64,000 nucleotides of DNA from Pedobacter ginsengisoli (lineage in GTDB: Bacteria > Bacteroidota > Bacteroidia > Sphingobacteriales > Sphingobacteriaceae), in assembly GCF_002736205.1 (NCBI RefSeq), contig NZ_CP024091.1:3531555-3595554 (forward strand), written 5' to 3'. This document shows, in pieces, positions 11,368-14,989 of the stretch. The notes below the pieces were generated by a model. The model did no database searches, was not told the DNA's origin, and saw only the letters and a program-made list of their open reading frames with translations. A program made the position numbers and the translations under genes. Positions within the stretch are counted from its first letter, which is position 1. Each line of letters opens with the position of its first letter.

Positions 11368-11411
11368 GGTGGAGAATAGCGGAGTCGAACCGCTGACCTC
11401 TTGCCTGCCAG
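11368..11411. repeat. Left attachment-like repeat (tRNA-Ala 3' fragment)
   Basis: These 44 bp are identical to 14946-14989 and cover the tRNA 3' end, acceptor strand, T arm, variable region and half of the anticodon arm. Identity ends abruptly at 11412, where the two copies diverge. Confidence 0.75.
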
Positions 11412-11443
11412 CAAAGCGAGCTAAACGCCCAGCTGAGCTTCCA
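11370..11443 (-). pseudogene. Broken tRNA-Ala copy
   Basis: The 3' half equals tRNA-Ala(GGC), but the 5' half is altered. The acceptor 5' strand (GCTTTGG) no longer pairs with ATTCTCC, and the 5' strand of the anticodon stem (CTTTG) does not match GCAAG. Residual D-arm sequence (AGCTCAGCTGG) remains. It should not give a working tRNA. It marks the far end of the island. The 5' boundary is approximate. Confidence 0.7.
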
Positions 11444-11799
11444 AAGCCTCTTTTCCTGCCTTTATTTCAATGTGCACGAATAAGTGCACGGTACCTAACG
11501 GGGTTTATAAATCTGTTAATTGTTACAATATAGTAAATCGACCGCTTAAATGTTTAGTATTAATTATGGTACTCAACCAAGCTTTCAACGCAATTAAGCA
11601 AAGGAGGAACGGAATAAATGGACTGTGTGGTGCTATGTGAGCGTTTATGCCGTAGTTCCTTTAAGCGTATTGTGGTGACAAGCCTTAACTTTGTGTAATG
11701 ATTAATACACCTGCTAACTCTATATCCACAGTTTTTACCTAATTGTACTTATATCGCGAAGGTTTAGATTATGGATATTAAATGCTGCCAGTGCTTTTA
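11412..11799. other. Non-coding stretch inside the left end of the island
   Basis: I see no gene between the tRNA remnant and the 240-residue protein gene. Around 11597 and 11650 are partly complementary segments (AAAGGAGGAACGG and CCGTAGTTCCTTT) that could form an imperfect hairpin. The right part (11722-11778) is a repeat unit described separately. Confidence 0.4.
11722..11778. repeat. 57-bp repeat unit, copy A, bounded by ATATCCA / TGGATAT
   Basis: The unit starts ATATCCACA and ends GATTATGGATAT, so its ends are inverted repeats. A unit of the same length at 12565-12621 matches at 36 of 57 positions by hand, ungapped, with identical ends. The two copies flank the 240-residue protein gene in direct orientation. 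The similarity continues a little further right (GCTnCC, CTTTT). Confidence 0.5.
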
Positions 11800-12522
11800 C
11801 TAGTTACTTGATTTTGGTTCAATCTGATAAACATCACACCCTTCTAAGGAAGCTAACTTCCCAAGTAGCTCTTGTGATCCACCAATGTAAGTGAATTCTG
11901 CATCGTAATTAGTAACAATGCACCATTCTTTTGTGTCTGGGTAAATCGCAGTAGGATTATCTAGGATATCATCTCGATTCCAAAGCACTTCAAGTTCTGA
12001 CAATCTCCCGCGATAGATAATCTCATTACCAAACCAGTCGGAGGTCTTTAAAAGACAATAATAATAGTTTACCTCTATATCGCCATACAGATTAAGAATT
12101 ACATCTCTAATTCTCTGTACTTGTGTATTTTCCAAATCACCATCAGCTGGAAAAGAAATATTCGATGGCCACTGTTGATCCTTCAACAGCAGTAACCTGA
12201 TACGTTCCTGCGCTTCGATTGCACTCTGTAAATCAAAATGTTCTCCATACAACTTAAAAAAGTTAGGCCAAGTGATTGCTTTGTAATCGAACTGCTTCTC
12301 ATTCTGTTGAAGACTATCCTGAGATAGACACTTTTCAGTCTTAATCCAGAATGGGTGAAAGACTATAGCATACCTCTCAAATATCAAAGGGCATAACAAA
12401 GTTAGATAGTACCAAAGTATTTCATTTGGTGCATACTCAATCTCATTATCTAAGGCAACGTGATCACCTAACGATGCATGTGTGGCTATCCATTCAGGTA
12501 ATACAGCGTTTATCTTCTTCAT
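11800..12522 (-). CDS. Hypothetical protein flanked by 57-bp repeats
   Basis: The 240-residue protein starts MKKINAVLPEWIATHASLGD at ATG 12522. It has no signal peptide or membrane helix, is rich in Trp and Tyr, and contains EYAPNEILWYYLTLLCPLIF and the C-terminal YIGGSQELLGKLASLEGCDV. I cannot place it in a family. Its size, solubility and solitary position in an island are like the immunity proteins of polymorphic toxin systems, but that is only a guess, since no toxin gene is visible. Both sides carry a related 57-bp repeat, so it may have moved as a cassette. Confidence 0.65.
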   Translation of the reverse strand: MKKINAVLPEWIATHASLGDHVALDNEIEYAPNEILWYYLTLLCPLIFERYAIVFHPFWIKTEKCLSQDSLQQNEKQFDYKAITWPNFFKLYGEHFDLQSAIEAQERIRLLLLKDQQWPSNISFPADGDLENTQVQRIRDVILNLYGDIEVNYYYCLLKTSDWFGNEIIYRGRLSELEVLWNRDDILDNPTAIYPDTKEWCIVTNYDAEFTYIGGSQELLGKLASLEGCDVYQIEPKSSN

Positions 12523-12951
12523 TTAATTTACAATTGACACCCTAAAGTAACGTTTCATTCTTTCATATCCACATTTTGTTACTGTTTCTCTTATTAAGCG
12601 ATAAGGCTAGATTTTGGATATTGAGCTACCTACACTTTTTCTATAATCTGGGTTTATACCCCCTATTTATAAACTGTAGGTTTTACACTTTGAGCAGATG
12701 AATTAAACCAAAATGCGTTTTGCTTCGGTTCTTGACCAGTACTTATTGATATGGATGAAAGTAAGGCGGGAAAATGTTGATATAGCTATTTGCTGAGGGG
12801 GTTGCAATTGGGTGGATGTGGTTCGGGGAGTTTGTTGTTGCTAGTCCAACCTTTATGTCTTACAAGGTTAAAACACACCTTGCTACTCGAAAGATTTACC
12901 TTTTAAACAGACAGGAACAACAGCTTACCCACCTTATAATGCATCTATCAG
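12523..12951. other. Non-coding island stretch with repeat copy B
   Basis: No gene is supported here. It contains the second 57-bp repeat unit, then a small inverted repeat near 12651 (GTTTATA and TATAAAC around a C-rich centre). A G-rich patch follows near 12795-12835. The purpose is unknown. Confidence 0.4.
12565..12621. repeat. 57-bp repeat unit, copy B
   Basis: It begins ATATCCACA and ends GATTTTGGATAT, and has the same length and orientation as the unit at 11722-11778. It lies 43 bp upstream of the start of the 240-residue protein gene, while copy A lies just after its stop. Confidence 0.5.
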
Positions 12952-13434
12952 TTATTTTTTATCTTCAATTACTATTACATCTTTAATCAGAAAATCGCGC
13001 TTCACACCGTACCTTAGATATTTACCTATTAACATCTGGGCTCGGACTTTTACTTTCGGTCCATATTTATCCCCCCATGAATCCACTAATCTAAGCAACC
13101 TGCCATCATGGCCACCCGCGAGAGGCATAAAGATAGCGGTATCTCTAAATTTAAATGCAGCACATGCATCAGTATACTCCCACCCCAACTCAGGATGTTG
13201 GTCTTGAAACTGTAAAAATCGATCCCTATACGGGCCTAAAATCTCTCGGGCCTCCATGCCATATCTCGCTGTGAACTCAATATTTGTTATAGAATATCCT
13301 GCATTCGGAAGAACCACCGAAGTCTTCAAGAGCGAATCAATATCAACTTCGGCGTATTTGTTAGTTAAAATACTTTGGCAGAATGATTGATTGCAGCCAA
13401 GAACAATGTATACTGTGAACAATAGTAACTTCAT
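12952..13434 (-). CDS. Exported hypothetical protein
   Basis: I start at ATG 13434, giving 160 residues, because MKLLLFTVYIVLGCNQSFCQ is a good signal peptide; the longer frame from 13533 would bury it. The mature part has YSITNIEFTARYGMEAREIL, a Trp-containing middle (ELGWEYTDACAAFKF) and a basic C-terminus ending VIVIEDKK. No family is recognised. It probably acts in the periplasm or is secreted. It lies alone in the tRNA-Ala island, downstream of the small membrane-protein gene on the same strand. Confidence 0.6.
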   Translation of the reverse strand: MKLLLFTVYIVLGCNQSFCQSILTNKYAEVDIDSLLKTSVVLPNAGYSITNIEFTARYGMEAREILGPYRDRFLQFQDQHPELGWEYTDACAAFKFRDTAIFMPLAGGHDGRLLRLVDSWGDKYGPKVKVRAQMLIGKYLRYGVKRDFLIKDVIVIEDKK

Positions 13435-13579
13435 CGGTTCATTATAAGGTTCTGTAGTCATTTTCTGTTGACTGCTAATAAAGATACCGTTATAAGATTT
13501 AATATAAAAACGAGCAAGTATCACCGTCCTCAATGTTGAGACGATAAGCTTACCTTTGTGGAGTAGCTAATATACAACT

Positions 13580-13768: not shown

Positions 13769-14424
13769 ATATTATAACTAATATAGTTGAAAAACTCAAT
13801 ATATGCTCACCGTAACTGCGAATGGAGTGAAGGTGTCAACTGGAAGAGCGCTAAGCGTGGCAGTTGACTATGTCTTGACACTAGGAACTGGCAAAGCATT
13901 TGAAAGTAGGGATGTGCTTAGGATGATCAAATGGTGTGACAGTTGCGCAGACTGAACGACCCGCAGGTGAGCCTCACTGAGAACCGCGAATAGATTTGTT
14001 AGTGACGAAACTTTAGGAGTTGCTATCAAAGATATAAGGAGTGGTTCATGAGCTGCGTCGCTTGCTGATAGCCAAAAATGATGACAGATTGCATATGGGC
14101 AGATTAAGCCAGGATTGCGAAGCATCCTAGCTGTGTGTGTTGGGGCAAGTGAAGTGAAGATGTGCTTGTAAAAGCTTATCAAGCGAACGTCATCTGGCGT
14201 TATTTTATGGCCAAGCTTAGTCTGCTGCGAATACCGCTCTTCCTGTGTCTTGCTTTGTTCAAAACCCACAGACTTACTGATAGCACGAATGCTCGCAGTG
14301 CAGTTAGTAGATAGTCACTACAGAATGTATACCTTATAAATAGATGACCAATCCTACCCATTCACGGCTTAAGCACCCCTTTTTGTGAAGGGGGATGGAT
14401 TGGAAAGGAGATAACAGGCGCTAC
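13769..14424. other. Unexplained stretch inside the island
   Basis: This 656-bp segment is more G+C-rich than its surroundings. A 133-codon minus-strand frame (14269-13868) exists, but its Leu/Ser/His-rich text has no family character and I do not accept it as a gene. Near the left end GTCAACTG (13835-13842) pairs with CAGTTGAC (13861-13868), with an inner CGCT/AGCG pair. A structured RNA or a decayed gene is possible. Confidence 0.4.
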
Positions 14425-14889
14425 CTAATGGCCAGCCAAGAAGGGATCGGAAACGCTTTCCTTTTCAGCATTGAAGAACCTCCATATTATTGGATCAGGG
14501 ATGTTGCCTGGATTGAAGTTCTTAACGACATCATATTGCTTGATCAGGAACAGAAACTTTGGACTACCATAACCCGGAATCAATGAGTTATAAACTATTG
14601 CATATAGTTCATTCTGCGAGAGTTGAGCTCTTATCAAACTTGTATAAAAGCTTCTTCTGTCATCAGTTATCAAAGGTGATAGGTGTACATATTTGAATAT
14701 ATGATACAACTGTCGGAAGTAGTGATTCAATGTGTTTTCAAACTCTGCATATCTTGTTCGATACGTTGTATTTAGCTCTTGCTTTAATTCATCGAAGGTT
14801 GCAAACGGAATAGGTGGGCCCGTTTCTACAGCGGCAGTTTCCTGGTTTATGATGGAACCTTGAGTGAGGCCTTCAGAAAAGTCATCTAA
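14425..14889 (-). pseudogene. 5'-truncated putative phage abortive-infection protein (PutAbiC)
   Basis: The frame from 14889 to 14425 is open for 154 codons after a TAG at 14892-14890 and has no ATG near its beginning; TTG 14730 is internal. It contains the PutAbiC core: NHYFRQLYHIFKYV, then LIRAQLSQNELYAIVYNSL, then FLFLIKQYDVVKNFN. In the family this region follows two N-terminal membrane helices, which are missing here. So this is the C-terminal part of a defence gene cut at its 5' end close to the tRNA-Ala end of the island. It is probably non-functional. The C-terminal tail after KNFN is atypical and may also be altered. Confidence 0.72.
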
Positions 14890-14903
14890 CTAGAAGCCGA
14901 GAA

Positions 14904-14940
14904 CAACAAAAATGCCTCTCAGAATTAACTGAAAGGCTTT
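14904..14940 (-). terminator. Rho-independent terminator of tRNA-Ala
   Basis: On the minus strand GCCTTTCAG pairs with CTGAGAGGC around TTAATT and is followed by ATTTTTGTTG. It sits seven bases past the tRNA 3' end. Confidence 0.75.
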
Positions 14941-14945
14941 TAATG

Positions 14946-14989
14946 GGTGGAGAATAGCGGAGTCGAACCGCTGACCTCTTGCCTGCCAG
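14946..14989. repeat. Right attachment-like repeat (within intact tRNA-Ala)
   Basis: This is the partner of 11368-11411, identical over 44 bp, lying inside the functional tRNA gene. An insertion at the tRNA 3' end would leave exactly this arrangement, with the intact gene regenerated. Confidence 0.75.

What the first reader, a model, noticed from the sequence alone, without database searches (positions are those of the whole stretch)
11368..14989. Small genomic island at tRNA-Ala(GGC) with 44-bp attachment-like repeats and no integrase
A 44-bp exact repeat of the tRNA 3' part bounds 3.6 kb. One end keeps the intact tRNA and the other a broken copy, as expected after integration at the tRNA 3' end. 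The interior has unknown genes and a broken defence gene but no recombinase. So it is either a decayed island or a satellite mobilised by an element elsewhere.
Basis: partly seen in the sequence, partly recalled or inferred. Interest (0 to 1): 0.65.

Follow-up and report, generated by a model that had tools for sequence, protein, structure and literature searches.

The report
Decayed mobile island at alanine tRNA
This 3.6-kb stretch is the worn-down remnant of a mobile DNA island that once inserted itself into an alanine tRNA gene of a Pedobacter bacterium; complete relatives of it, with their insertion enzyme, sit in the same gene in other species.

Summary
An exact 44-bp repeat (11368-11411, 14946-14989) bounds 3.6 kb; its right copy is the 3' part of an intact tRNA-Ala(GGC), the only GGC copy found in the genome. 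Relatives in the genus (Pedobacter) settle what it is. Five of 41 sites read in other species carry complete 12.6-17.4-kb islands on the same side of this tRNA with a 43-45-bp core copy. Order from the far end: att copy, conserved end, radC, 148-nt hairpin element, cargo, backbone genes, tyrosine integrase, tRNA. The window keeps the far att copy, the end, the hairpin element, three small cargo ORFs and the C-terminal half of an AbiC-like gene; radC, backbone and integrase are gone. Other species show other stages of decay, and two show the site without island and with one tRNA-Ala. No integrase of the tRNA-Ala type was found elsewhere in the genome, so a decayed island is favoured over an active satellite. 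Against those two sites the insertion is larger (about 5266-14928). Two by-products deserve follow-up: an integrase clade that inserts on either side of tRNA-Ala(GGC), at its near-palindromic anticodon arm, and the retained hairpin element, found in 76 of 145 genomes, with no Rfam match.

The parts
14946..15021 (-). intact tRNA-Ala(GGC), the integration target; only GGC copy found in the genome
   Evidence: ARAGORN; Rfam 63.5 bits; the four other tRNA-Ala-like places are TGC
14946..14989 (+). right att copy: tRNA 3' part from the anticodon loop to the 3' end
14914..14937 (-). terminator-like hairpin of tRNA-Ala, of the type seen beside this tRNA in other species
11368..11411 (+). left (distal) att copy: displaced tRNA 3' fragment, 44 bp exact
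11412..11445 (.). degenerate tRNA 5'-half-like sequence (D-arm recognisable) next to the left core; origin unexplained
   Evidence: score 27, reached by 1 of 5000 shuffles and 0 of 4890 window 46-mers; the five complete islands score 10-15
11369..11541 (.). conserved far end of the island family (core plus about 130 bp)
   Evidence: 73-75% identical to the ends in G102, G142 and G081 by blastn; alignment of 7 ends. In G128 and G019 blastn does not extend far beyond the core
11541..11558 (.). scar of the deletion that removed radC (about 460 bp absent relative to complete islands)
   Evidence: MAFFT alignment of 7 island ends
11559..11706 (+). 148-nt covarying hairpin element, in most relatives immediately upstream of and divergent from radC
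   Evidence: 163.5 bits with model R1
11800..12522 (-). cargo gene, 240 aa, unknown family, full length and with low dN/dS
   Evidence: homologues of full length in G076 and G096; dN/dS 0.12 and 0.18; no Pfam, PHROG, NCBIfam or PADLOC match
12952..13434 (-). cargo ORF, 160 aa, no family
13580..13768 (-). cargo ORF, 62 aa, possibly a membrane protein (impression from the sequence, not tested)
   Evidence: homologues in G006 (87%) and G024 (57%); dN/dS 0.15 against G006
13804..14348 (.). stretch without a convincing gene, 85% identical to the stretch upstream of a ThsB-like TIR gene in the genome's own tRNA-Arg island; here without that gene
   Evidence: TIR gene matches PADLOC ThsB at 8e-125
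14425..14886 (-). C-terminal part of an AbiC-like gene; the N-terminal part (about half of the 318-aa relative in G108) is missing
   Evidence: putAbiC 6.5e-16; 64% identical over 149 aa to the 318-aa protein of G108
14887..14905 (.). approximate junction of the deletion that removed the backbone genes and integrase, next to the tRNA terminator
   Evidence: sequence; homology to other tRNA-Ala sites begins at 14902-14905 in several
5266..14928 (.). whole stretch absent from the site of G134 and G076 (includes an ABC transporter block and a class D beta-lactamase besides the 3.6-kb island)

Best explanation
The stretch is a decayed integrative genomic island at tRNA-Ala(GGC). An island of roughly 12-17 kb, like those in Pedobacter sp. 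PLR, P. gandavensis, Pedobacter sp. N36a and P. psychroterrae, inserted into the tRNA gene through its own tyrosine integrase, crossing over in the anticodon loop. The tRNA was rebuilt with the 3' half carried by the island, and the displaced host 3' half stayed as the far copy at 11368. At least two later deletions wrecked it. One removed radC (scar at 11541/11558). The other ran from inside an AbiC gene to just short of the tRNA terminator and removed the backbone genes, the integrase and the integrase-side flank of the attachment site. What remains is most likely immobile and persists as passive cargo, of which at least the 240-aa gene still looks functional. Shown: the shared end, order and target, the missing modules, the sites without island, and that no integrase of this type was found in the genome. 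Inferred: the crossover chemistry, the order of events and the loss of mobility.
For: Exact 44-bp copies, 2 in the genome. Five of the 41 tRNA-Ala sites read in other species carry a complete island on the same side with a 43-45-bp core copy at the far end (one with 1 mismatch), an integrase next to the tRNA, and radC (G102, G142, G128, G081, G019). The far end aligns over the core plus about 130 bp and then over the hairpin element, with radC missing in the window. Decay in other species at the same site: integrase cut to a 73-aa ORF in G071, integrase and radC fragments in G096, a 2.2-kb stretch between a 39-bp core copy and the tRNA with none of the reference genes in G062. Site without island and with one tRNA-Ala in G134 and G076. 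All 15 examined integrases 53-100% identical to this clade sit 133-381 bp from a tRNA-Ala(GGC). The one match in the window's genome is 23% identical; 14 PF00589 matches were listed there.
Against: The tRNA-like 5' half beside the left core is not seen in the five complete islands tested and is not explained. The left terminator differs from the usual one of this tRNA. No other genome of the same species was available, so the undecayed parent of this very island was not seen; pieces of the interior are scattered over different genomes. tRNA-Tyr, present beside tRNA-Ala in G134 and G076, is absent here, so the exact starting site is not known. Excision was not tested.
Confidence: 0.9

Rival explanations
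1. A miniature satellite: the two 44-bp copies are functional ends and an integrase encoded elsewhere moves the 3.6-kb unit in trans.
For: The two 44-bp cores are identical and the 148-nt element near the end is intact (163.5 bits). The genome carries a related island with its own integrase at tRNA-Arg, bounded by a 67-bp copy of that tRNA.
Against: That integrase is only 23% identical to the tRNA-Ala clade and its own att copies derive from tRNA-Arg. The search of the genome reported no closer one; the other PF00589 proteins were not compared one by one for target site. The integrase side is deleted, and a defence gene is cut at the deletion junction, which looks like damage rather than design.
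Confidence: 0.05
2. Tandem tRNA-Ala genes of which the left one decayed; the 3.6 kb between them is ordinary DNA.
For: The left copy has similarity to the tRNA 5' half as well, and some species have a further tRNA (tRNA-Tyr) beside tRNA-Ala.
Against: Divergence is all on one side of the anticodon loop: 44 of 44 identical on the 3' side, degenerate on the 5' side. The sequence inside the left copy is the end of an island family. None of the 41 sites read in other species has two tRNA-Ala(GGC) genes in the stretch held.
Confidence: 0.02
3. A composite: 5266-14928 is a stack of at least two insertions, an older one (ABC transporter block, beta-lactamase and debris, 5266-11367) and the tRNA-Ala island next to the tRNA. 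This is compatible with the best explanation and extends it.
For: Window 1-5265 runs on into tRNA-Tyr and tRNA-Ala in G134 and G076. The ABC block 5404-8345 occurs as a block away from the tRNA-Ala site in other species, for example on another contig in G096 and G100. A terminator unlike the usual one precedes the left copy.
Against: No second displaced tRNA fragment was found in the window, so the older part has no proven site-specific origin; G134 and G076 could instead have lost DNA.
Confidence: 0.5

Closest known systems
tRNA-gene genomic islands as catalogued by Islander (PMC4383910, passages read)
   Same: An intact tRNA at one end and a displaced fragment at the other, 3' fragment, anticodon-centred crossover.
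   Different: No integrase left. Islander rejects candidates without an integrase ORF, so this remnant would be missed there.
complete Pedobacter islands at tRNA-Ala(GGC): Pedobacter sp. PLR (L117), P. gandavensis (L127), Pedobacter sp. N36a (L124), P. psychroterrae (L103) and unnamed G019 (L133)
   Same: Same target, same side, same core (43-45 bp), same 148-nt element; the same far end, clearest in L103, L117 and L127.
   Different: The window has lost radC, the backbone genes and the integrase; its cargo differs.
tyrosine integrases that use the symmetric anticodon stem-loop, and archaeal pTN3-like integrases whose site is the tRNA 5' half (PMC8371274, passages read)
   Same: The anticodon arm as crossover site and its dyad symmetry as the reason, and use of a 5' half, are known.
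   Different: Here one bacterial clade uses either side of one and the same tRNA gene.
tRNA gene fragments mis-annotated as tRNA genes (PMC9897764, abstract and outline read)
   Same: The left fragment is called 'tRNA-Leu(tag)' by ARAGORN.
   Different: That paper starts from Thermococcaceae (archaea) and treats tRNAscan-SE output in GtRNAdb.
putAbiC (PF16872) abortive-infection-type proteins
   Same: The interior keeps the C-terminal putAbiC domain; the relative in G108 has 318 aa.
   Different: Here the N-terminal part is missing; function is not expected.

Membership tests
tRNA-targeted integrative genomic island | intact tRNA at one end, displaced tRNA fragment at the other, same strand | tested here: met
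tRNA-targeted integrative genomic island | integrase gene of its own | tested here: not met
   no match in the window; the 14 PF00589 matches of the genome lie elsewhere
tRNA-targeted integrative genomic island | absent from the same site in relatives | tested here: met
   G134 and G076 lack it
tRNA-targeted integrative genomic island | excises as a circle | not testable with these tools
   needs reads or PCR
Pedobacter tRNA-Ala(GGC) island family described here | conserved far end: core plus about 130 bp | tested here: met
Pedobacter tRNA-Ala(GGC) island family described here | 148-nt hairpin element near the far end | tested here: met
   163.5 bits at G000:C1:3543113-3543260 = window 11559-11706; the window copy is one of the 34 in the model
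Pedobacter tRNA-Ala(GGC) island family described here | radC beside the hairpin element | tested here: not met
   missing
Pedobacter tRNA-Ala(GGC) island family described here | backbone: P161, P170, SF2-helicase-like 640-aa protein, P157, P263 | tested here: not met
   no tblastn match in the window at E 1e-4
integrative and conjugative or mobilizable element | relaxase or other transfer genes | tested here: inconclusive
   of the 10 proteins from relatives' islands given to Pfam only the integrase, RadC, a RelA/SpoT-type protein and weak AAA-type matches were named; no relaxase search was run
phage satellite | phage-related backbone | tested here: inconclusive
   the helicase-like protein has one weak relative in IMG/VR (29%); of the interior ORFs only the AbiC piece has PHROG matches, two families of unknown function; other backbone proteins were not searched there

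The most novel reading that the evidence does not exclude
The remnant belongs to a little-known class of Bacteroidota islands whose tRNA-Ala(GGC) integrases insert on either side of the tRNA by using its near-palindromic anticodon arm. Their far end carries a conserved 148-nt hairpin element (ssDNA or RNA) that is a cis-acting mobility signal (origin, transfer or packaging) or a regulatory RNA; it is intact here although the island's own machinery is gone, so the remnant could still be a passive substrate for a helper.
Probability: 0.2. Interest if true: 0.7.

Novelty: new member of a known kind. Interest (0 to 1): 0.4.

Why it matters
By itself this is an ordinary decayed tRNA island. It matters as a snapshot: with complete, half-decayed and island-free sites at the same tRNA in one genus, the way a mobile island loses its parts can be compared between species. 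It also led to two testable points: one integrase clade that inserts on both sides of one tRNA gene, and a conserved hairpin element near the far end of many islands that Rfam does not list.

Tried and rejected
Phage collection at DNA level: 208 records matched; the 20 rows listed all match the tRNA part only, so it was set aside. Pfam, PHROGs, NCBIfam and PADLOC for the interior ORFs: nothing except the AbiC piece (the 62-aa ORF was not given to PADLOC). Rfam for the window and, laxly, for the island: only the tRNA, plus a sub-threshold tmRNA match on the tRNA fragment. Solved structures for the 640-aa backbone protein by sequence: none; it is called SF2-helicase-like from invariant K56/G62/T64, D153/E154 and Q335/G338/R339/R341, motif names recalled. 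A viral origin for the backbone: one weak hit, not pursued. Tandem-tRNA decay was rejected. No structure was predicted.

Print: searches listed no paper on these Pedobacter islands or on one integrase clade using both sides of one tRNA gene (listings and openings of abstracts seen; passages read only in PMC4383910 and PMC8371274). Subscription papers are mostly not held, and Williams 2002 (PMC100330) was not held, so no claim of priority is made.

Rows dropped: one search kept 80 of 122 relatives, and one search examined 44 of those 80. One search counted 35 hairpin places after leaving out three loci of the window itself and seven repeats of the same place. The 41 tRNA-Ala sites were taken from the listings, mostly the best matches, not at random, and each was read over 20 kb or less.
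Full report
CHECK OF THE OBSERVATION. The 44-bp repeat is exact at 11368-11411 and 14946-14989. With up to 3 mismatches it occurs twice in the window (0 in 100 shuffles) and twice in the whole 5.37-Mb single-contig genome. The right copy is the 3' part, from the anticodon loop to the 3' end, of an intact tRNA-Ala(GGC) on the minus strand (14946-15021). The four other tRNA-Ala-like places found in the genome are tRNA-Ala(TGC). The left copy is identical up to the anticodon loop and degenerate beyond it, with a recognisable D-arm. That extension is not chance (1 of 5000 shuffles, 0 of 4890 other 46-mers). ARAGORN's 'tRNA-Leu(tag)' at 11368-11456 is this fragment, an annotation artefact.

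WHAT RELATIVES SHOW. I read the tRNA-Ala(GGC) site in 41 genomes. Five have a complete island on the same side of the tRNA with a 43-45-bp core copy at the far end (97.7% in G102, 100% in the others); core start to core start they measure 12.6 kb in G102, 15.0 in G142, 14.3 in G128, 16.4 in G081 and 17.4 in G019. Their order, from the far end, is core, conserved end, radC (PF04002), a 148-nt element, variable cargo, backbone proteins (P161 and a 640-aa SF2-helicase-like protein in all five; P170, P157 and P263 seen at this threshold only in G142), then a tyrosine integrase (PF00589 with PF13102 and PF17293) and the tRNA. About 130 bp of end beyond the core match the window by blastn in G102, G142 and G081 (73-75%). 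G018 and G084 carry the same kind of island on the other side of the tRNA. In all, 9 of the 41 sites hold such an integrase or a piece of it.

WHAT THE WINDOW LACKS. A seven-way alignment of the far ends shows core and end alignable in the window to 11541, then the loss of about 460 bp of radC, then the 148-nt element from 11558 on. The other deletion lies at about 14887-14905: an AbiC-like gene, 318 aa in G108, keeps here only a C-terminal part, aligned over 149 residues at 64% identity, and ends next to the tRNA terminator. Integrase, radC and the five backbone proteins give no tblastn match in the window. Other sites show other stages: G071 has a 73-aa integrase ORF and a 147-aa radC, G096 has pieces of integrase and radC, and G062 has 2.2 kb between a 39-bp core copy and the tRNA with none of the reference genes.

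SITES WITHOUT THE ISLAND, AND EXTENT. In G134 and G076 the window's 1-5265 and 1-5258 are collinear (88.7% and 87.9%), followed after about 110 and 150 bp by tRNA-Tyr and then by tRNA-Ala and the right flank, which itself has about 0.8 and 0.2 kb more than the window behind 15104. So about 9.7 kb (5266-14928) is extra here, of which the 3.6-kb island is the part next to the tRNA; the tRNA-Tyr is missing (the one match to it in this genome lies at 5219887-5219980). The rest holds an ABC transporter block, found away from the tRNA-Ala site in other species, and a class D beta-lactamase. No second tRNA fragment marks that older part.

SATELLITE OR WRECK. The genome has 14 PF00589 matches. The only match found with the tRNA-Ala integrase as query is 23% identical. 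It belongs to an own island of about 13.3 kb at tRNA-Arg(CCT), bounded by a 67-bp, 92.5% copy of that tRNA, which shares the backbone with G142 (helicase-like protein 80%, P263 76%, P170 69%, P161 41%, P157 29%), and the 148-nt element and a 551-bp stretch (85%) with the window. An integrase for tRNA-Ala was therefore not found, and the integrase side of the island is gone too. I put decay at 0.9 and a trans-mobilised satellite at 0.05. The 240-aa cargo gene has dN/dS 0.12 and 0.18 against its homologues, so the remnant is not all junk; that measure covers its history in other islands as well.

INTEGRASE CLADE. A scan of a collection of 84,980 species genomes gave 122 relatives, of which 80 were kept and 44 examined for a neighbouring tRNA. 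All 15 integrases with 53-100% identity lie 133-381 bp from a tRNA-Ala(GGC), in Pedobacter (7), Daejeonella (1), Flavihumibacter (1) and Mucilaginibacter (6). Of the 29 with 43% or less, 27 lie within 1.5 kb of another tRNA (Val, Arg, Met, Asn and others) and 2 have none. Against a clean rule: the integrase of G019 is only 40% identical and also uses tRNA-Ala(GGC). In 4 of the 15 the island lies on the tRNA's 3' side, in 11 on its 5' side. A search of 12 of these genomes found a displaced fragment on the expected side, same strand and contig: a 3' half in 4 of 4 three-prime-side genomes, and a 5'-side piece in 7 of 8 five-prime-side genomes. Six of those seven reach the tRNA's 5' end; in G169 (P. 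westerhofensis) it is a 36-bp inner piece; the eighth genome (G174) has fragments only on the other strand or another contig. The 3' halves end at query position 52; five of the 5' halves begin at 42-45, so they overlap around the anticodon loop, while the pieces in G170 and G169 begin at 31 and 32 (with the genome's own tRNA as query, G084, the same genome as G170, gives tRNA positions 1-42). The anticodon arm is a palindrome except for its central base (TTGCCTGGCAGGCAA or TTGCATGGCATGCAA). On the tree the two sides are mixed within the Pedobacter subclade, and at least two changes of side are needed among 16 rows (the 15 plus G019). Islander lists 5' fragments in 159 of 3919 islands, and archaeal pTN3-like integrases use the 5' half, so the 5' side is known but rare; use of both sides by one clade is what I have not seen in print within the searches named.

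THE 148-NT ELEMENT. Window 11559-11706 belongs to a family present in 76 of 145 Pedobacter genomes. Of 32 integrase loci searched, one more copy turned up, in Mucilaginibacter (L179 20086-20230), near the far att copy of that island (20433-20473). It lies directly upstream of and divergent from radC in 29 of 35 places; the own tRNA-Arg island is among the six without. In an alignment of 34 copies, 95.3% of the cells of the predicted long hairpin pair (shuffled 89.9%, 0 of 500 as high), 13 of 40 pairs show changes on both sides (shuffled 8.2, 1 of 500), the covariation score is 0.232 (shuffled 0.139, 0 of 500), and sliding the partners by 1-3 columns drops pairing to 36-46%. Less favourable: the number of further pair types does not exceed the shuffles (193 of 500 as high), the structure was derived from the same alignment, and on the trimmed alignment used for the search model only the 21 inner pairs were predicted. 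G-U cells outnumber A-C cells 99 to 8, suggesting that the plus strand (pointing away from radC) is the one that folds, though the prediction itself favours G-U on that strand. Rfam has no match. Its function is unknown: a DNA signal for mobility and a small RNA are both open.

VERDICT. A real feature, correctly read as a decayed island; a new member of a known kind, with two leads beyond it.

Noticed in passing
window 11559-11706; 76 of 145 genus genomes: Conserved 148-nt covarying hairpin element next to radC, near the far end of the islands examined; no Rfam match; RNA or ssDNA signal.
   Followed up: partly
L168-L182 (integrase loci), tRNA-Ala(GGC): One integrase clade inserts on the 3' side (4 of 15) or the 5' side (11 of 15) of the same tRNA gene, whose anticodon arm is palindromic except for its central base.
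   Followed up: partly
G000:C1:4551992-4565272 (L158, L140): A related island of about 13.3 kb with its own integrase at tRNA-Arg(CCT) in the same genome; carries a ThsB-like TIR gene (PADLOC 8e-125) preceded by a stretch of about 550 bp, of which the window holds an orphan copy (13804-14348).
   Followed up: partly
window 5266-11367: Further DNA absent from the sites of G134 and G076: ABC transporter block 5404-8345 and a class D beta-lactamase at 10004-10813.
   Followed up: partly
window 11412-11445: tRNA 5'-half-like sequence beside the left core that the five complete islands tested lack.
   Followed up: partly
L117, L124, L127, L133: These islands stand between copies of tRNA-Tyr, so they appear to carry a whole tRNA-Tyr next to the rebuilt tRNA-Ala.
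   Followed up: no
G069:C6:4221-57054: A tRNA-Ala and a copy of its 3' part lie about 52.7 kb apart, possibly a much larger island at the same site.
   Followed up: no
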